Source of the DNA: Rugamonas sp.
GTDB taxonomy: Bacteria; Pseudomonadota; Gammaproteobacteria; Burkholderiales; Burkholderiaceae_D
Assembly: GCF_025354735.1 (NCBI RefSeq)
Contig: NZ_JANXMI010000230.1
Span: 1-64,000 of the forward strand
DNA: 64,000 bases
Direction of reading: 5' to 3'
The position numbers and the translations under genes were made by a program. Below the pieces are notes generated by a model. It did not search any database, was not told where the DNA came from, and was given only the letters and a program-made list of their open reading frames with translations. This document shows positions 20,383-26,387 of the stretch, in pieces (the first letter of the stretch is position 1; each line of letters starts with the position of its first letter).

Positions 20383-22015
20383 ACAAGAAGGCGAACAGCC
20401 CGCGCTGATGCTGCCCACGCCGGCCGTCGACCGGGGCAGCCGCTGGCTGCCGTCGCTGGTCTGGCTGATCCCGCTGCTGGCGGCGCTGATCGGCATCGGC
20501 CTGGTGGCGCGCTCGGTGCTCGACAAGGGGCCGACGGTGACGGTCAGCTTCCGCACCGGCGACGGCCTGGAGCCGGGCAAGACCAAGGTCAAATTCAAGG
20601 ACGTCGACATCGGCCTGGTGCGTTCGGTGAAGATCGATCCCGACCTGTCGAAGGTGATCGTGACGATCGACATGACCAAGGAGGCGCGCCGCTTCACCAC
20701 CGCCGACACGCGCTTCTGGGTGGTGCGCCCGCGCGTCGGCGCGTCCGGCGTGTCGGGCCTGGGCACGCTGCTGTCGGGCGCCTACATCGGCGTCGACGCC
20801 GGCAAGTCCGGCGACGAGGCCAGCGAATTCGTCGGCCTGGAACAGGTGCCGCAGATTATCGGCGACCAGAAGGGCACGCAGTACACGCTGCACGGCCAGA
20901 GCCTGGGCTCCATCGACACCGGCACGCCGCTGTTCTACCGCCGCATTCCGGTCGGCCAGGTGGTCAACTACGCGCTCGACCCGTCCGGCGCCGGCGTGAC
21001 GATGACGGTGTTCGTCAACGCGCCCTACGACCAGTACGTCGGCAAGGACACGCGCTGGTGGCACGCCAGCGGCGTCGACGTGCGGCTCGATTCGAGCGGC
21101 TTCAAACTCAATACGCAATCGCTGGCCGCGCTGCTGGTGGGCGGCGTCGCCTTCGAGTCCATCGACGGCCAGCGCCCGCCGGCGATGGCGCCGCAGGGCA
21201 CCAACTTCGTGCTGGCGGCCGACCAGGCCAGCGCGCTGCGCGAACCGGACGGCCGGCCCATCACCACCGTGTTCTATTTCGACCAGTCGCTGCGCGGCCT
21301 GTCGCCGGGCGCGCCGGTCGACTTCCGCGGCATCGTGCTCGGCGAGGTGCGCTCGGTCGGCGTCGAATTCGATCCGGTCAAGAAAAGCTTCCGCATGCCG
21401 GTCACGGTGGACCTTTATCCGCGCCGCCTGGGCAAGAGCTTCGAGCAGACGCTGATCGACGAGAACGACCGCCACGCCGGCTCGATGGTCTTGCAGCGCA
21501 TGGTCGGCCAGGGCCTGCGCGCGCAGCTGCGCACCGGTAATCTGCTGACCAGCCAGTTGTACATCGCGCTCGACTTCTTCCCGAAAGCGCCGCCGGTCAC
21601 GGTCGACGTGAACCAGATGCCGGTCCAGGTGCCGACGGTGCCGAACACGCTCGACGAATTGCAGACGCAGGTCGCCAGCATCGCCCGCAAGCTCGATCAG
21701 ATTCCGTTCGGCGACATCGGCAACAACCTCAATGTGTCGCTGAAAAGCCTGGACGCGACGCTCAAGAGCGCCAACGCCCTGTTCAAGCAGATCGACGGCC
21801 AGGTGGTGCCGGAAATGAAGGACACGCTGCACGCGGCCCAGCACACCTTCGGCGCGGCCGAGCAGGTGCTGCAAAAGGATTCGCCGGTGCAGTCCGACCT
21901 GCGCGAAGCCTTGCAGCAGCTGACGCAAACGCTGCAATCGCTGAACACCTTGTCCGATTATCTGGAGCGTCATCCGGAGTCGCTGATACGCGGTAAAAAG
22001 GGAGATCAAAAATGA
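20375..22015 (+). CDS. pqiB: intermembrane transport protein PqiB (MCE/MlaD repeats)
   Basis: A 546-residue protein with one N-terminal transmembrane helix (about residues 25-45) and three MCE/MlaD domains, each recognisable by a G-L-x-x-G-x-x-V block (for example GDGLEPGKTKVKFKDVDIG and RGLSPGAPVDFRGIVLGEV). A C-terminal helical segment follows, as in E. coli PqiB, where stacked MCE rings and a helical needle form a channel across the periplasm. Start ATG 20375 has CTGGAG upstream and lies inside the end of pqiA; the stop overlaps pqiC by 4 bp. Confidence 0.94.
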   Translation: MSEQEGEQPALMLPTPAVDRGSRWLPSLVWLIPLLAALIGIGLVARSVLDKGPTVTVSFRTGDGLEPGKTKVKFKDVDIGLVRSVKIDPDLSKVIVTIDMTKEARRFTTADTRFWVVRPRVGASGVSGLGTLLSGAYIGVDAGKSGDEASEFVGLEQVPQIIGDQKGTQYTLHGQSLGSIDTGTPLFYRRIPVGQVVNYALDPSGAGVTMTVFVNAPYDQYVGKDTRWWHASGVDVRLDSSGFKLNTQSLAALLVGGVAFESIDGQRPPAMAPQGTNFVLAADQASALREPDGRPITTVFYFDQSLRGLSPGAPVDFRGIVLGEVRSVGVEFDPVKKSFRMPVTVDLYPRRLGKSFEQTLIDENDRHAGSMVLQRMVGQGLRAQLRTGNLLTSQLYIALDFFPKAPPVTVDVNQMPVQVPTVPNTLDELQTQVASIARKLDQIPFGDIGNNLNVSLKSLDATLKSANALFKQIDGQVVPEMKDTLHAAQHTFGAAEQVLQKDSPVQSDLREALQQLTQTLQSLNTLSDYLERHPESLIRGKKGDQK

Positions 22016-22752
22016 CCATGCTGCGCCCAACTTCGCGCGTATCTTCGAAATCGCAATCGCAATCGCAATCGCGTTCGCATTCGTGCGCGCCATCGGACGC
22101 TCCGATGTTGAATGCGCGTCCGTATTGCGCGGGGCGTCCGTCGTCGGCGGCACGTGGTGTGCTGGCGGTCGCGGCGGCCGTGCTGGCGCTGGCCGGTTGC
22201 GCCAGCGCGCCGACCGACCACTTCTACAGCCTCAGTAATGGTATCGGCGGCGGCGCCGGCGCCGCGCCGGCGCAGGTCGATCCCGGCTACTACATCGAAC
22301 TGCCCGCGGTGACGGCGCCGCAGCAGCTGGCCCGCGTGCAGATGCTGGTCAGCTCCGGCGCCGGCCAGGTCGACGTCAAGGAACAGGAGCGCTGGTCGGC
22401 GCCGCCGGCCGCCGAAATCGGCCAGGCCCTGTCGCTGGCGATCACCGGCGAGCTGGGAACGATAGACGTGTTCCGCACGCCGACGCCGAAGGACGCGCCG
22501 GTCTACCGCATCAGCACCAGCGTGCAGCGCTTCGAATCGGCGCCGGGCCAGTACGCGCTGATCGACGCCGTGTGGAGCGTGCACAAAGTCGGCACCGAGC
22601 AGGTGCTGACCTGCCGCAGTGTGGCCGAGGAAAAAGTCGGCGCCGGCTACGACGCGCTGGTGGCCGGCCACCGCCGCGCCGTCAACCGCGTCGGCGCCGC
22701 GATCTCGAAAGCCGTGCGGCAGATGGCGGGCGGCGGCAAGGGCGGTTGCTGA
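22012..22752 (+). CDS. pqiC: PqiC-type outer-membrane lipoprotein (ABC-type transport auxiliary)
   Basis: A lipoprotein of the PqiC/YmbA family that would anchor the PqiB needle in the outer membrane. From the ATG at 22012 (ATGA overlap with pqiB, GGAG upstream) it has 246 residues and the lipobox LAGC with cysteine 63, an unusually late position. The extra N-terminus is Ser/Gln-rich and is encoded by a hexanucleotide repeat near 22048-22080. An internal ATG at 22105 would give a normal 31-residue lipoprotein signal with cysteine 32. The 3' end (22691-22752) recurs in degraded form at 23579-23639. Confidence 0.88.
   Translation: MTMLRPTSRVSSKSQSQSQSRSHSCAPSDAPMLNARPYCAGRPSSAARGVLAVAAAVLALAGCASAPTDHFYSLSNGIGGGAGAAPAQVDPGYYIELPAVTAPQQLARVQMLVSSGAGQVDVKEQERWSAPPAAEIGQALSLAITGELGTIDVFRTPTPKDAPVYRISTSVQRFESAPGQYALIDAVWSVHKVGTEQVLTCRSVAEEKVGAGYDALVAGHRRAVNRVGAAISKAVRQMAGGGKGGC
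22691..22752 (+). repeat. pqiC 3'-end repeat, copy 1 (intact)
   Basis: The last 62 bp of pqiC recur at 23579-23639 in the same orientation. The first 19 bases are identical and most of the rest matches with a few substitutions and indels (by eye about 50 or more of 62). The two copies bracket the three-ORF islet. Confidence 0.75.
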
Positions 22753-22763
22753 TCGGGCGGTGA

Positions 22764-23030
22764 GTGAAACCAAACGAGCTGTTTGACCGCAACAACTTGA
22801 CGCAGGCAGAAGAGTTGCTGATGGCGCAGGATGTCGCGCTCTCTTATTTTCAGGGCGAGCTATACGACCGCCAGGGATTACGCCTTGAGGGCATTATCAT
22901 CGACCTGCCTGGCGGCGAGACGCTAGACCTTGACAAAGCCAAGACCGGCAGGTTGTTCATGATCCCGGACGGATCATGCTCTTTGCAGCTGGAAATGGGC
23001 CGATTGATCCGGACGATCCGGATGGCTTAG
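22764..23030 (+). CDS. small hypothetical protein (islet ORF 1)
   Basis: An 88-residue acidic ORF starting with a GTG at 22764, 11 bp after pqiC, with GGGCGGTGA just before it. I do not recognise a family. Composition and codon use are less GC-biased than in pqiABC, which suggests later acquisition. It overlaps the next ORF by 55 bp in another frame, an unusually long overlap; one possibility is that ORFs 1 and 2 are halves of a gene broken by a frameshift. Small size and position in a tight three-ORF group are compatible with antitoxin or immunity roles, but nothing in the sequence shows this. Confidence 0.45.
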   Translation: MKPNELFDRNNLTQAEELLMAQDVALSYFQGELYDRQGLRLEGIIIDLPGGETLDLDKAKTGRLFMIPDGSCSLQLEMGRLIRTIRMA

Positions 23031-23281
23031 TCGGATTCACTGTCTGGCCGAAGTTCGGTTTTGATGCCACCATCAACCCTGCAGAACTCAACGCGGCGCC
23101 GTCCGATGCCTTGCGCGCGTGTGGAACAGTCCAGGAAGTGATCGCAACCGATCCGGATTGGTGGGCTGCTCATGGCCGTGGCCGGGATATGCGCTTCGAC
23201 TTGGCCGCTGCCAGCCACAGTTGGAGGATTCTGCTAAACTATTTGTACGATGTACTTCATCGGCCGGAGATCGAACCATGA
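22976..23281 (+). CDS. small hypothetical protein (islet ORF 2)
   Basis: A 101-residue ORF from an ATG at 22976, inside the end of islet ORF 1. The N-terminus is rich in D/P/G and the C-terminus is helical with a W-R-x-L-L-N-Y-L-Y pattern. No family is recognised. The stop overlaps the start of islet ORF 3 (ATGA), a sign that at least ORFs 2 and 3 are co-translated. The start is uncertain because no clear ribosome binding site precedes 22976; if the gene is the continuation of ORF 1 after a frameshift, translation would begin at 22764. Confidence 0.45.
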   Translation: MLFAAGNGPIDPDDPDGLVGFTVWPKFGFDATINPAELNAAPSDALRACGTVQEVIATDPDWWAAHGRGRDMRFDLAAASHSWRILLNYLYDVLHRPEIEP

Positions 23282-23514
23282 CAGCCCTTAAAAAGACGTC
23301 GCTCATCGACAATAACCCCTACAAGTTAGCTGCTGCGGTCCGGCGCGCCAAAATGGCCTCAATGGACACTTCAATTGCCGGTGAAGTGACGCCGTCTCAG
23401 GGGCGCATTCGCGTGACTCTCGGTGGTAAAGCTTTAGGCCGTGACCGTCAGACCGCCTTGTTCGGGCCGTCATCGATCGACATTCCCGAGTTTTCAATCG
23501 CCCGCAAGCGATAG
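23278..23514 (+). CDS. small hypothetical protein (islet ORF 3)
   Basis: A 78-residue basic ORF whose ATG overlaps the stop of islet ORF 2 by 4 bp. It begins with a short helical, lysine/arginine-rich part (residues about 14-27) and ends with FSIARKR. CCGGAGA at about 23263-23270 could serve as its ribosome binding site. No family is recognised. Its base composition resembles ORFs 1 and 2 rather than the surrounding core genes. Confidence 0.45.
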   Translation: MTALKKTSLIDNNPYKLAAAVRRAKMASMDTSIAGEVTPSQGRIRVTLGGKALGRDRQTALFGPSSIDIPEFSIARKR

Positions 23515-23527
23515 CCAGCCGGCAGAC

Positions 23528-23578
23528 GTAGACGCGACCACATGCATCACCTGCTCGCGCAGCCAGCGGTCGGCGGCA
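23528..23578 (-). pseudogene. remnant of a LysR gene 3' end
   Basis: Read on the minus strand this segment encodes a LysR C-terminal tail (RWLREQVMHVVAST), close to the tail of the intact LysR at 24683-25594 (RWLREQVMQVVASTP). A 28-base run at 23543-23570 is identical to 24708-24735. No promoter, start or helix-turn-helix coding part is present, so it is a fragment. It abuts the second copy of the pqiC 3' end, so two gene ends that were not obviously adjacent are joined here. Confidence 0.65.
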
Positions 23579-23639
23579 TCGGCGCCGCGATCTCGAACGC
23601 CGGCGGCAGATGGCGGCGGGCGGGCAGGGCGGCTGCTGA
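23579..23639 (+). repeat. pqiC 3'-end repeat, copy 2 (degenerate)
   Basis: A partial, slightly mutated copy of 22691-22752. Indels destroy the reading frame of pqiC here. It lies directly before a strong hairpin that may originally have been the pqiC terminator. Confidence 0.7.
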
Positions 23640-23671
23640 AAGCAAAACCGCCGATCTTTTCAGATCGGCGG
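23638..23671 (-). terminator. Rho-independent terminator with GAAA tetraloop
   Basis: On the minus strand CCGCCGATCT, GAAA and AGATCGGCGG form a perfect 10-bp stem closed by a GAAA loop (23648-23671), followed by TTTTGCTTT. It is placed 74 bp after the stop of the minus-strand PEP-CTERM gene and should terminate it. On the plus strand the stem has no T-tract. Confidence 0.75.
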
Positions 23672-23744
23672 CGTCGGGCAAATGCGCTTGACAGCGGATG
23701 TCGGCTTGCGGTGACCCGGCATCGCCCTGCGGATTCAGCTTGGC

Positions 23745-24500
23745 TTAAACACGTCGACGACGCGCTGCGACGCCGATCAGACCCAGGCCGGCCATCAGCA
23801 TGGCGTAGGTTTCAGGCTCCGGTACCGCCGTCGCGGTAAATGAATAACTGGCCGCAGTCAGCGCGGCTGTAGACGTGCCTGTATTGATGCCGGACTGAGT
23901 GACATAAACCGACAGAAGGCTGTCGATTCCAAGTATGGAATATCCGCCGGATGGCCCCGGGAAATTTTCCTCTGATGTCGCCTTGCCATCGTTAAGATGG
24001 ACATTGACTGTCTGCGCCGCACCATTGGAGTAGGAGTAAGCGTAGGAGCCAACATATCCTATTTGAGGACCGCTGTTGTATGAGCCGCCTGTGAAACTGC
24101 CTTGGGAAATATAACTATCACTTGCAATTTCGGCACGTCCGCCCACTGCGGGGGTGCTGTAAGTGCCCGCCAAGCTCGTATGAATCTTGGCGTCCAGTGT
24201 AAAATTCGCGTGGGCTATCGCAACTACTCCAGCAAATCCAGCGGGAGCATCGTAAAAGCCGGCGTCAGCTGTTCCACTTCCACGTGTGGGCGCGTTGACC
24301 GACGCGCTGAAGTCAGGAATGCCATTAAATGCGATGCTGTCGCCAGTCACTGATACCGTAGTTCCTGCCCAGAAGTCAGTATCGTAAAAGAAATCTTCAT
24401 GAGCTCCATGGATTTCGGTGAAACTCGTGGCTTGGGCGGAGGAGATGGTGCAGATGGCGAACGCGGCCAACAATATGGTTACGATTGATTTGGTTTTCAC
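23745..24500 (-). CDS. PEP-CTERM sorted exported protein
   Basis: A 251-residue secreted protein. From a GTG start at 24500 (GGGGA upstream) it has a signal peptide ending near ISSAQA, a Gly/Ser/Thr/Asn-rich beta-type body, and a C-terminal VPEPETYAMLMAGLGLIGVAARRRR tail: the PEP motif, a hydrophobic helix and a basic end that define PEP-CTERM proteins processed by exosortase. The body matches no family I know. Such proteins are usually surface or biofilm-associated. GC content is clearly lower than in core genes. An ATG at 24593 extends the frame but would bury the signal peptide. Confidence 0.85.
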   Translation of the reverse strand: MKTKSIVTILLAAFAICTISSAQATSFTEIHGAHEDFFYDTDFWAGTTVSVTGDSIAFNGIPDFSASVNAPTRGSGTADAGFYDAPAGFAGVVAIAHANFTLDAKIHTSLAGTYSTPAVGGRAEIASDSYISQGSFTGGSYNSGPQIGYVGSYAYSYSNGAAQTVNVHLNDGKATSEENFPGPSGGYSILGIDSLLSVYVTQSGINTGTSTAALTAASYSFTATAVPEPETYAMLMAGLGLIGVAARRRRV

Positions 24501-24682
24501 TATTCTTTTCCCCGAGTTTTTTGCTCGCACCGATATGGCGAAAGCGCAGAATTTATAGCGGATCGCTGGTGAATCGTTCATTTCTACAAACAACTTCCAT
24601 CAATTGTTTGTTCATAATATCGTATTTGCAACTAAATACAAATATACCAATAAATTCAGTTGATGTGGTCAGACCAAGCGCA

Positions 24683-25594
24683 TTAAACAGGCGTGGATGC
24701 AACAACCTGCATCACCTGCTCGCGCAGCCAGCGGTTGGCGGGGTCGGTGTCGACGTTGGCGTGCCAGTACAGGTGGATGTCGAGGGCCGGCATCGGCAGG
24801 GGGAAGGGCAGCATCTGGTTGCCGAACCGTTCGTTGACCACGCGCGCCAGGCGCTCGGGCATCGTCAGCGCGAGGTCGGTCTGGCTGACGACGCGGCTGG
24901 CGGCGTAGTAGTGCTGGCAGCGCAGCCGGATGCGGCGCTGCAGTCCCAGCCGGCTCAATTCGAAATCCTCCAGCCCCGGCCCGCGCCGGCGCGAACTGGC
25001 CAGCACGTGTTCCTGTTGCAGATACAGCGCCAGGTCGAGCGCGCCCTGTATCTGCGGGTGGTCCTTGCGCACCAGGACCACGGTGTTGTCGCTGATGAGG
25101 CGCGTGTGCAGGATCTGTTCCGACAGCGGCAGCAGCACGTCGATGGCCGCGTCCAGCGTGCCGGCGGCCAGTTCGCTTTCCAGTTCGCGCCGTTCGACCT
25201 GCGGCGCGTTCAGACCGACGCCCGGCGCCGACAGCGCCACGCTGGCCATCAGCGGCGGCAGCACGGTCGCCTCGAGCACGTCGCGCAGGGCCAGCGTGAA
25301 GGTGCGGTCGCTGCTGGGCGGGTCGAAGCGCTCGGCGCCGTTCAGCGTCAGCTCGAAGCCGCGCAGCGCCTGCCGCACCGGCTCGATGATGGAACGCGCC
25401 ATCGGCGTCGGCACCATCACGTGGCCCTGGCGCTCGAACAGCGGATCGCCGAACAGCTGGCGCAGGCGGTTCAGCGCATGGCTGACGGCCGGCTGCGTCA
25501 AGCTCATTTTCAGGCTGGCGCGCGTGATGCTGCCTTCCGTGTAGATCGCTTCAAAGACGATGAACAGATTCAGGTCGACGCGCGATATATGCAT
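24683..25594 (-). CDS. LysR-family transcriptional regulator
   Basis: A 303-residue LysR regulator of the NodD/NahR-like group (DLNLFIVFEAIYTEGSITRAS at the N-terminus, then LTQPAVSHALNRLRQLFGDPLF as helix-turn-helix, then an effector domain). The start is the ATG at 25594. It is divergent from a histidine phosphatase and an acyl-CoA dehydrogenase, with a short 91-bp gap that holds an inverted repeat, so it probably controls those genes as well as itself. Its last 45-50 bp resemble the fragment at 23528-23578. Confidence 0.88.
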   Translation of the reverse strand: MHISRVDLNLFIVFEAIYTEGSITRASLKMSLTQPAVSHALNRLRQLFGDPLFERQGHVMVPTPMARSIIEPVRQALRGFELTLNGAERFDPPSSDRTFTLALRDVLEATVLPPLMASVALSAPGVGLNAPQVERRELESELAAGTLDAAIDVLLPLSEQILHTRLISDNTVVLVRKDHPQIQGALDLALYLQQEHVLASSRRRGPGLEDFELSRLGLQRRIRLRCQHYYAASRVVSQTDLALTMPERLARVVNERFGNQMLPFPLPMPALDIHLYWHANVDTDPANRWLREQVMQVVASTPV

Positions 25595-25620
25595 GAAATT
25601 TATACAGTCTCATTAAAAGT

Positions 25621-25685: not shown

Positions 25686-26387
25686 ATGGCTCATATATAT
25701 CTGGTGCGGCATGGGCAGGCGTCGTTCGGCAGCGCCAATTACGATCAGCTGTCGGCGCTCGGTTTCGAGCAGGCGCGCCTGCTGGGACAGTGGTTCGCCA
25801 CCTGCCGCCAGGATTTTCAGCGCGTGCTCACCGGCGGCATGCAGCGCCACCGCCAGAGCGCCGACACCTGCCTCGGCCAGCTGCCGCCGGCGCTGCTGCT
25901 CGATGCCGACTTCCACACCGACGCCGACTTCGCCGAATTCGATCACCACCAGGTGCTGTTGCGCCACTGTCCGGAGTTCGGCGACGCCGCCGCCTTCGGG
26001 CGCTTGACCGCGCGCCACCAACAGCCGCAGCGCGCCTTCGAGCAGATTTTCGCCGGCGCCATGACGCGCTGGATGGACGGCGCGCACGACGCCGATTACA
26101 GCGAGCCGTGGCCGGCCTTCCGCGCGCGCTGCGTCGCCGCGCTCGAACGCGCCAGCGCCGCCGATGCGGCATCGACCATCGTCTTCACGTCCGGCGGCGT
26201 GATTGCGGCGCTGGTGCAGCACGTGCTCGGCCTGCAAGACCGCCAGGTGATGGAGATGAGCTGGACCCTGGCCAACTGCTCGGTGACGAAGCTGGTGCGG
26301 CGCTCCGGGCGCCTCGGCCTCGGCTATTTGAACAACTACGCGCACCTGGAGTGGCTGGGTGGGGCCGACGCCATCACGTATAAATAA
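25686..26387 (+). CDS. histidine phosphatase family protein
   Basis: A 233-residue protein with the phosphoglycerate-mutase-like signature LVRHGQASFG at residues 6-15, containing the phospho-accepting histidine, and a second conserved region TSGGVIAALVQHVLG near the C-terminus. Family members remove phosphate from small molecules or proteins; the substrate cannot be told. It precedes the acyl-CoA dehydrogenase gene by 24 bp. This pairing (phosphatase plus acyl-CoA dehydrogenase) suggests a role in carboxylic-acid or aminoglycoside-phosphotransferase-linked acyl metabolism, but that link is only contextual. Confidence 0.85.
   Translation: MAHIYLVRHGQASFGSANYDQLSALGFEQARLLGQWFATCRQDFQRVLTGGMQRHRQSADTCLGQLPPALLLDADFHTDADFAEFDHHQVLLRHCPEFGDAAAFGRLTARHQQPQRAFEQIFAGAMTRWMDGAHDADYSEPWPAFRARCVAALERASAADAASTIVFTSGGVIAALVQHVLGLQDRQVMEMSWTLANCSVTKLVRRSGRLGLGYLNNYAHLEWLGGADAITYK

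What the first reader, a model, noticed from the sequence alone, without database searches (positions are those of the whole stretch)
22691..23640. Three-ORF islet flanked by direct repeats of the pqiC 3' end
22691-22752 (the end of pqiC) recurs, degraded, at 23579-23639. Between the copies are three small, lower-GC ORFs without known family. Integration into the 3' end of a gene with re-creation of that end is how many islands insert, so this may be a mini-island that has lost its integrase. An older tandem duplication is the alternative.
Basis: partly seen in the sequence, partly recalled or inferred. Interest (0 to 1): 0.6.

Follow-up and report, generated by a model that had tools for sequence, protein, structure and literature searches.

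The report
Broken gene pair in duplicated slot
The small islet after pqiC is a broken copy of a mobile, so far unnamed two-gene module, sitting where the tail ends of two neighbouring genes were doubled, rather than an island that a lost integrase put there.

Summary
The repeat is real: pqiC 22688-22752 recurs at 23576-23639 (57 of 65 columns). A lysR-tail/pqiC-tail fusion is the join left by a tandem duplication, or additive merger, of the pqiC-lysR tail-to-tail slot. It is not a simple integrase attachment site.

In 32 of 55 congeneric regions read, the same lysR follows pqiC, with gaps from -4 to 4839 nt and varied cargo (in three, a PIN-domain gene). None of the 55 has the window's cargo.

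The 'three ORFs' are two genes. ORF1+ORF2 are one gene (A, about 258 aa when intact) broken by a 256-nt frameshifting deletion; ORF3 is its partner B (78 aa, intact). Intact A-B pairs are scattered, mainly in Burkholderiales, plasmids included; in Massilia frigida the pair is a discrete insertion with empty sites in relatives. A matches no Pfam, NCBIfam, PHROGs or PADLOC family, is predicted GNAT-like, and its domain is fused to phage MuF head proteins in two viral contigs. A toxin/antitoxin- or immunity-like role is plausible but untested; A's acetyl-CoA loop is degenerate.

The parts
22012..22752 (+). pqiC (ABC_trans_aux lipoprotein), intact; its last 65 nt (22688-22752) are the parent of the right-hand repeat
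   Evidence: Pfam PF03886 E 3.5e-36; alignment
22764..23281 (+). gene A pseudogene: ORF1 (22764-23030) and ORF2 (22976-23281) are the two ends of one gene, about 258 aa when intact; 256 nt are missing at about 22973 and the frame is shifted; GTG start 11 nt after the pqiC stop
   Evidence: alignment to the intact homologue in L037/L173; dN 0.13, dS 1.2 for the C part
23278..23514 (+). gene B, 78 aa, intact, basic (pI 11.0), ATGA overlap with A; followed directly by lysR', without the terminator hairpin seen after B in many homologues
23523..23582 (-). lysR': degraded copy of the lysR 3' end (parent 24688-24747), without the lysR stop codon
23576..23639 (+). pqiC': degraded copy of the pqiC 3' end with its stop codon (parent 22688-22752)
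23576..23582 (.). fusion point of lysR' and pqiC' (alignments overlap here); the two parents share GTCGG
23647..23672 (-). terminator-like hairpin on the minus strand, downstream of the PEP-CTERM gene
23745..24593 (-). PEP-CTERM protein gene, cargo of the second half of the slot
   Evidence: Pfam PF07589 E 1.9e-9; closest genus relatives 36-40% identical and elsewhere in their genomes
24683..25594 (-). lysR-family regulator, intact, convergent with pqiC; its 3' end is the parent of lysR'
   Evidence: Pfam PF00126, PF03466; conserved order pqiC - lysR - ORF 25686-26387 in relatives

Best explanation
The islet is a decayed copy of a small mobile two-gene module (A-B) in a doubled pqiC/lysR tail-to-tail slot. 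Shown: pqiC (+) and lysR (-) face each other tail to tail in relatives and the gap takes varied cargo; in the window the order is pqiC | A-B | lysR' tail fused to pqiC' tail | PEP-CTERM gene | lysR, which is the order produced when the unit [pqiC tail - gap - lysR tail] is present twice; A is broken by a 256-nt deletion and B is intact. Inferred: the two units came from two related alleles (one with A-B, one with the PEP-CTERM gene) that were merged additively, with homology in pqiC on one side and a 5-nt microhomology (GTCGG) at the lysR'/pqiC' join. Inferred and weaker: intact A-B acts as a GNAT-fold toxin or effector (A) with its small basic neutraliser (B), so that a broken A with a surviving B is harmless scrap.
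For: Both repeats are far above shuffles. In 32 of 55 congeneric regions read the same lysR follows pqiC, with stop-to-stop gaps of -4 to 4839 nt, 13 of 32 at most 152 nt and 19 of 32 above 600 nt; three of 32 cargo ORFs scanned are PIN-domain proteins, in L113 preceded by a small ORF and ending 2 nt from the lysR end. A-B is a unit: of 20 family-survey matches covering at least 240 residues of A, 17 had a locus and all 17 have a small ORF right after A; in 14 of these 17 it matches B by sequence at E 1e-3. Other neighbours share little: the commonest Pfam family is in 3 of 79 neighbouring ORFs. In M. frigida and G264 A-B lies between two convergent genes that are adjacent, 43-117 nt apart, in 7 relatives. 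For the merger: both tails are closer to the window's own genes (57/65 and 51/60) than to any relative, and 9 of 14 substitutions fall at third codon positions (binomial P 0.017). The A pieces and B hold no stop; in a simulation of neutral change that has P 0.08 at 11% and 0.05 at 14% divergence.
Against: No relative with A-B in the pqiC-lysR slot was found (0 of 55), so the proposed donor allele is unseen. The third-position excess can also arise after a local duplication, because the retained copy stays under selection; the P values are weak and the tails short. The A-B ends in the window (11 nt from pqiC, 8 nt from lysR') lack the flanks of other copies, so how A-B entered cannot be read from them. 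Toxin/partner reading: no toxicity data; the canonical acetyl-CoA loop motif is missing near residue 134 in all 18 stand-alone A proteins checked; PDB fold matches are weak; the B model is poor (pLDDT 68.7, pTM 0.28). The genome is fragmented (334 contigs), so misassembly is not fully excluded.
Confidence: 0.7

Rival explanations
1. Local tandem duplication of the short pqiC-tail/lysR-tail junction through the GTCGG microhomology, then two independent insertions: A-B into the first copy, the PEP-CTERM gene into the second, with decay of the inner tails.
For: Gaps of -4 to 0 nt occur in 5 of 32 relatives, so the ancestral unit could be only about 130-140 nt. The slot takes cargo often (19 of 32 above 600 nt). 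Native and remnant tails are each other's closest matches among the sequences compared. 5-nt microhomology.
Against: Needs two insertions, each exactly at a gene end. The tails differ by 14 substitutions in about 111 compared positions, but A and B show no stop codons (P 0.08 at 11%). 9 of 14 substitutions at third positions.
Confidence: 0.35
2. One reading: a mini-island integrated site-specifically into the pqiC 3' end, re-created that end, and lost its integrase.
For: Direct repeat of the gene end flanking foreign genes; A-B is mobile.
Against: A lysR tail is fused to the inner side of the right repeat. No tyrosine-recombinase match in the window. The M. frigida copy shows no repeat of its left neighbour's end in a self-comparison at E 1e-3.
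Confidence: 0.06
3. Misassembly or strain mixture in a fragmented genome joined two alleles artificially.
For: 334 contigs, 3.97% contamination estimate.
Against: The tail copies differ from their parents at 12-15% of positions and carry an indel, and the fusion is internal to a 70.4-kb contig; assemblers rarely join such diverged ends (inference).
Confidence: 0.06

Closest known systems
MuF polymorphic toxins of temperate phages (PMC5576092)
   Same: The A-like domain is the C-terminal part of two IMG/VR proteins with a Phage_Mu_F domain (L197, L198; PF04233 E 1.4e-18 and 2.1e-18). Stand-alone A, like MuF toxin genes, is followed by a small ORF; that paper reports 89.4% of 191 MuF toxin genes followed by one (section 8 read).
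   Different: Stand-alone A has no MuF part; the paper's main text holds no mention of GNAT or acetyltransferase (find).
GNAT toxins of type II toxin-antitoxin systems (AtaT, TacT, KacT, GmvT)
   Same: Predicted GNAT-like fold; these toxins appear among the PDB fold matches, though not above other GNATs; two overlapping genes.
   Different: B follows A (recalled: in these systems the antitoxin gene comes first) and matches no DUF1778 profile; the acetyl-CoA loop motif is degenerate; A, 258 aa, is longer than the listed toxin chains of about 150-180 aa.
GNAT domains of phage polyvalent proteins (PMC5512222)
   Same: GNAT domains carried by phages and conjugative elements as predicted effectors (passages read); long multi-domain phage proteins with A-like domains were seen here.
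   Different: Sequence relation to those two families was not tested.
PIN-domain (VapC-like) gene pairs in the same slot of relatives
   Same: A PIN gene with a small ORF before it, between the pqiC and lysR tails, ending 2 nt from the lysR end in L113.
   Different: Unrelated proteins; that the partner ORF is a VapB is my reading of its sequence, not a family match.

Membership tests
Integrase-type genomic island in a gene 3' end | Direct repeats of the gene end flank the element | tested here: met
   22688-22752 and 23576-23639, but with a lysR tail fused to the inner side of the right copy
Integrase-type genomic island in a gene 3' end | Site-specific recombinase gene in the element | tested here: not met
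   No PF00589 match in the window; no family for any islet ORF. Serine recombinases were not searched in the genome
Integrase-type genomic island in a gene 3' end | Empty site in close relatives restores one gene end | tested here: inconclusive
   No relative closer than 76% PqiC identity was found; distant relatives have one pqiC end before lysR or other cargo
GNAT acetyltransferase superfamily (protein A) | GNAT fold | tested here: inconclusive
   AF2 model pLDDT 85.8, pTM 0.87; most top PDB matches are GNATs but best E 1.8e-3 and none at 1e-3; best Z 7.0 with 131 aligned residues, rmsd 4.7, a level that the tool warns can be a common arrangement
GNAT acetyltransferase superfamily (protein A) | Match to a curated acetyltransferase profile | tested here: not met
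   No Pfam or NCBIfam acetyltransferase match for M. frigida A nor in Pfam for the 11 members of A1 at E 1
GNAT acetyltransferase superfamily (protein A) | Acetyl-CoA loop motif [RQ]xxGx[GA] (motif recalled) | tested here: not met
   None of the 18 proteins of A2 has it near residue 134; two have it elsewhere (residues 80 and 48). Three longer fused proteins (L073-L075) have related forms such as RGLGLR
Type II GNAT toxin-antitoxin | Ribbon-helix-helix antitoxin (DUF1778 type) | tested here: inconclusive
   No DUF1778 or RHH profile match among 22 B proteins at E 1; one weak TraY-domain match, E 0.087 (TraY is a ribbon-helix-helix domain, recalled)
Type II GNAT toxin-antitoxin | Toxicity of one gene, rescue by the other | not testable with these tools
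   needs expression
MuF polymorphic toxin | N-terminal MuF domain on the toxin protein | tested here: not met
   Stand-alone A has none; present in related phage proteins L197 and L198, not matched in L073-L075
MuF polymorphic toxin | Small ORF directly downstream | tested here: met
   17 of 17 loci examined, 14 of them with a B match by sequence; a small ORF alone is weak evidence in GC-rich DNA

The most novel reading that the evidence does not exclude
Probability: 0.3. Interest if true: 0.65.

Novelty: new variant of a known kind. Interest (0 to 1): 0.4.

Why it matters
It shows how a repeat-flanked 'mini-island' can be the scar of a doubled or merged gene-tail slot with no integrase, a caution for island callers. 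It also uncovers a paired-gene family (A-B), seen mainly in Burkholderiales, whose A protein has no profile in Pfam, NCBIfam, PHROGs or PADLOC, with purifying selection (dN/dS about 0.07 for B and 0.10 for the C part of A, window against M. frigida, dS near saturation) and a link to phage head proteins. That is a testable candidate conflict system.

Tried and rejected
Attachment-site mini-island: disfavoured by the lysR' tail and the absence of a tyrosine-recombinase match. Rfam (22000-25600) and tRNA (whole window) scans for an RNA attachment target: nothing. Promoter scan 22650-24720: none found, shuffles give 1.3. A preference of A-B for convergent gaps: 8 of 20 loci by crude ORF calls, no clear excess. 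Defence-island context: 79 of 166 neighbouring ORFs of at least 120 aa were scanned; PADLOC gave 7 families, one member each; Pfam gave 51 families of which 25 were shown. Sequence relatives of A in the PDB: only chance-level matches, best E 1.3 and 0.12. Phage records with A: none; plasmids: 10 records. Papers on a pqiC/lysR hotspot: nothing relevant in the 6 of 9 papers listed; tandem duplication with convergent genes: none. That A-B is not in print is not claimed beyond the listings and the four profile libraries. PMC3482391 was searched for GNAT and acetyltransferase: no occurrence in the part held.

Broken A with intact B: window, G038:C38, and G010 (B only, no A match in that genome); both damaged, or B damaged and A absent or reduced, in G288, G224:C2, G124; none of the 17 examined full-length A loci lacks a small downstream ORF. 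Too few for a claim.

The best other match is 56.3 bits (own 264); a few weak matches of at most 47.3 bits and 74-80% identity span the join by position, which I take as chance in GC-rich DNA and did not inspect.

Rows dropped: of 57 other genus genomes with a PqiC hit, two with weak hits (G022, G062) were left out of the 55. Three of the 20 long A matches had no locus and were not examined (one of them is L182). Of the 24 genome-contig loci, one search used 18 and one search used 21 plus the window. For slot cargo, 32 of 47 ORFs were scanned. The loci overlap (for example L047 and L173 are the same place). The genome-contig scan used a single peptide pattern and so sees only part of the family.
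Full report
Observation. The window is contig C173 of a 5.76-Mb, 334-contig genome. The pqiC 3' end 22688-22752 recurs at 23576-23639, 57 of 65 columns identical with one single-base deletion; alignment score 88 against at most 37 in 500 shuffles. The two alignments overlap by 7 nt and the two parents share GTCGG there.

What the order means. From left to right the window reads pqiC, A, B, lysR tail copy, pqiC tail copy, PEP-CTERM gene on the minus strand, lysR. The lysR copy runs from the gene's end inwards and then meets the pqiC copy running outwards to its stop. This is the join made when a unit [pqiC tail - gap - lysR tail] follows itself. A site-specific insertion into pqiC would repeat the pqiC end but would not put the tail of the neighbouring gene next to it. 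No tyrosine-recombinase match lies in the window.

Relatives. PqiC was found in 58 of 74 genus genomes, own included. I read about 6 kb downstream in 55 others (two weak hits dropped). In 32 of 55 the orthologous lysR follows (over 60% identity), with stop-to-stop gaps of -4 to 4839 nt: 13 of 32 at most 152 nt, 19 above 600 nt. None of the 55 has A or B there by tblastn at E 1e-3; the PEP-CTERM protein gave only a short sorting-motif match in L163, about 5.4 kb downstream of pqiC, and one in the shorter locus of G051. Cargo includes a PIN-domain gene (3 of 32 ORFs scanned, of 47), other LysR regulators, TauE, MFS, GST and esterase proteins. In L113 the PIN gene is preceded by a 109-aa ORF and stops 2 nt before the lysR end. 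The slot is therefore a recurrent landing place. The fused tails were not found in the other 391 family genomes sampled: the best match elsewhere is 56.3 bits against 264 for the window, and covers the pqiC side; some weak matches span the join by position at 74-80% identity and were not inspected.

The insert. The best homologues, in Massilia frigida (G254, L037/L173) and in G264, show one 258-aa gene where the window has ORF1 and ORF2, followed by a 79-aa gene matching ORF3, starting in an ATGA overlap (the G264 copy matches from residue 15 on). The window gene A lacks 256 nt, which shifts the frame. B is intact. Against M. frigida, NG86 gives dN 0.19, dS 2.7 for B, dN 0.13, dS 1.2 for the C part of A and dN 0.27, dS 0.84 for the N part (dS near saturation). 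So the pair was under protein-level selection for most of its history and A probably broke recently. In 11 of 21 other loci a hairpin followed by TTTT lies within 70 nt after the B stop, including the closest ones; the window copy goes straight into the lysR tail.

A-B family. Protein A matches in 35 of 392 family genomes, 10 plasmid records (Cupriavidus 4, Janthinobacterium 2, Variovorax 2, Burkholderia 1, Paraburkholderia 1), no phage record, 24 loci in the named genome collection (20 in genera that I place in Burkholderiales, four others; single-pattern scan), and 14 viral contigs. Of 20 family matches covering at least 240 residues, the 17 with a locus all have a small ORF after A; 14 of those match B by sequence at E 1e-3, and in G180, G149 and G370 I call it B by position and motif only. 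Of the 24 genome-contig loci 23 have such an ORF (sets overlap). B is usually basic and A usually acidic (exceptions L176 for A, L179 near neutral for B). Most B proteins keep a C-terminal PE motif (the L179/L180 type does not), but overall B similarity is low. No profile in Pfam, NCBIfam or PHROGs describes M. frigida A, and the A1 set has none in PADLOC and only weak single matches in Pfam; one distant member has a sub-threshold DUF7713 match.

Mobility without an integrase. In M. frigida and G264 the pair sits between two convergent genes (the left one of unassigned family, the right one a long GGDEF-type protein by my reading). Of 17 genomes of that genus, 16 have the left gene; in 7 the two genes lie 43-117 nt apart with no A-B, 2 have A-B between, one is fragmentary, and in 6 the right gene was not in the fetched stretch. 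Among 79 neighbouring ORFs of A-B elsewhere no Pfam family occurs more than three times. An orphan B in G010 lies near a tyrosine recombinase gene.

What A may be. An AlphaFold2 model of M. frigida A is confident (pLDDT 85.8, pTM 0.87). PDB matches are dominated by GNAT acetyltransferases, including toxins AtaT, TacT, KacT and GmvT, but are weak: best Foldseek E 1.8e-3, none at 1e-3, best Z 7.0 with 131 aligned residues, rmsd 4.7. Stronger matches are uncultured-phage proteins, best E 7.7e-12; one, E 1.8e-7, is named 'Phage head morphogenesis domain'. In IMG/VR loci L197 and L198 the A-like domain is the C-terminal part of a Phage_Mu_F protein; three bacterial proteins of about 570 aa with the domain (L073-L075) gave no MuF match. 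MuF toxins are known to carry C-terminal toxic domains and, in 89.4% of 191 genes, a small following ORF (PMC5576092, passages and section 8 read); passages on predicted phage GNAT effectors are in PMC5512222. This supports, without proving, that solo A-B is a toxin/effector and neutraliser pair. Against it, the acetyl-CoA loop motif (recalled) is absent from the equivalent place in all 18 A proteins tested, so A may not be an active acetyltransferase.

How the slot was doubled. Two routes fit. Merger: a related allele pqiC - A-B - lysR was added beside the resident pqiC - PEP-CTERM - lysR, with homology on the pqiC side and microhomology at the other. Homology-facilitated illegitimate recombination typically shows 3-10 bp microhomology at the join, but generally with a deletion of recipient DNA (PMC3240628, passages read); none is evident here. 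Local duplication: the bare junction doubled, then took two cargoes. For the merger speak 9 of 14 substitutions at third codon positions (P 0.017) and the absence of stops in A and B (P 0.08 at 11% neutral divergence). Both are weak, so I hold the merger at about 0.5 and local duplication at 0.35. The shared part, a doubled pqiC/lysR tail slot holding a broken A-B module, is much firmer.

Verdict. The locus itself is a relic of modest interest; the A-B pair it exposes deserves a test.

Noticed in passing
window 23523-23582: Degraded copy of the lysR 3' end fused to the pqiC tail copy; the key to the locus and not in the finding.
   Followed up: yes
L113 619-1349 (also L121, L139): The same pqiC-lysR slot in relatives holds a PIN-domain gene; in L113 with a small ORF before it.
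   Followed up: partly
L182 6708-7238: Two B-like sequences fused in one 176-aa ORF after A in a second A locus of Massilia frigida.
   Followed up: no
L200, L207, L208, L210 (IMG/VR): Very long phage proteins contain several A-like stretches separated by short cysteine/glycine-rich segments (read by eye).
   Followed up: no
L197 and L198 (IMG/VR): Phage Mu F-like head proteins end in an A-like domain.
   Followed up: partly
window 22045-22083: Six-base tandem repeat (TCGCAA, 6.5 copies) in the 5' end of pqiC, giving an SQ-rich stretch.
   Followed up: no
L220 (G010:C321): Orphan intact B with no A match in that genome, near a tyrosine recombinase gene.
   Followed up: partly
G000:C246:7903-8124: A second, distant A-like protein in the window's own genome (E 2.9e-4).
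   Followed up: no
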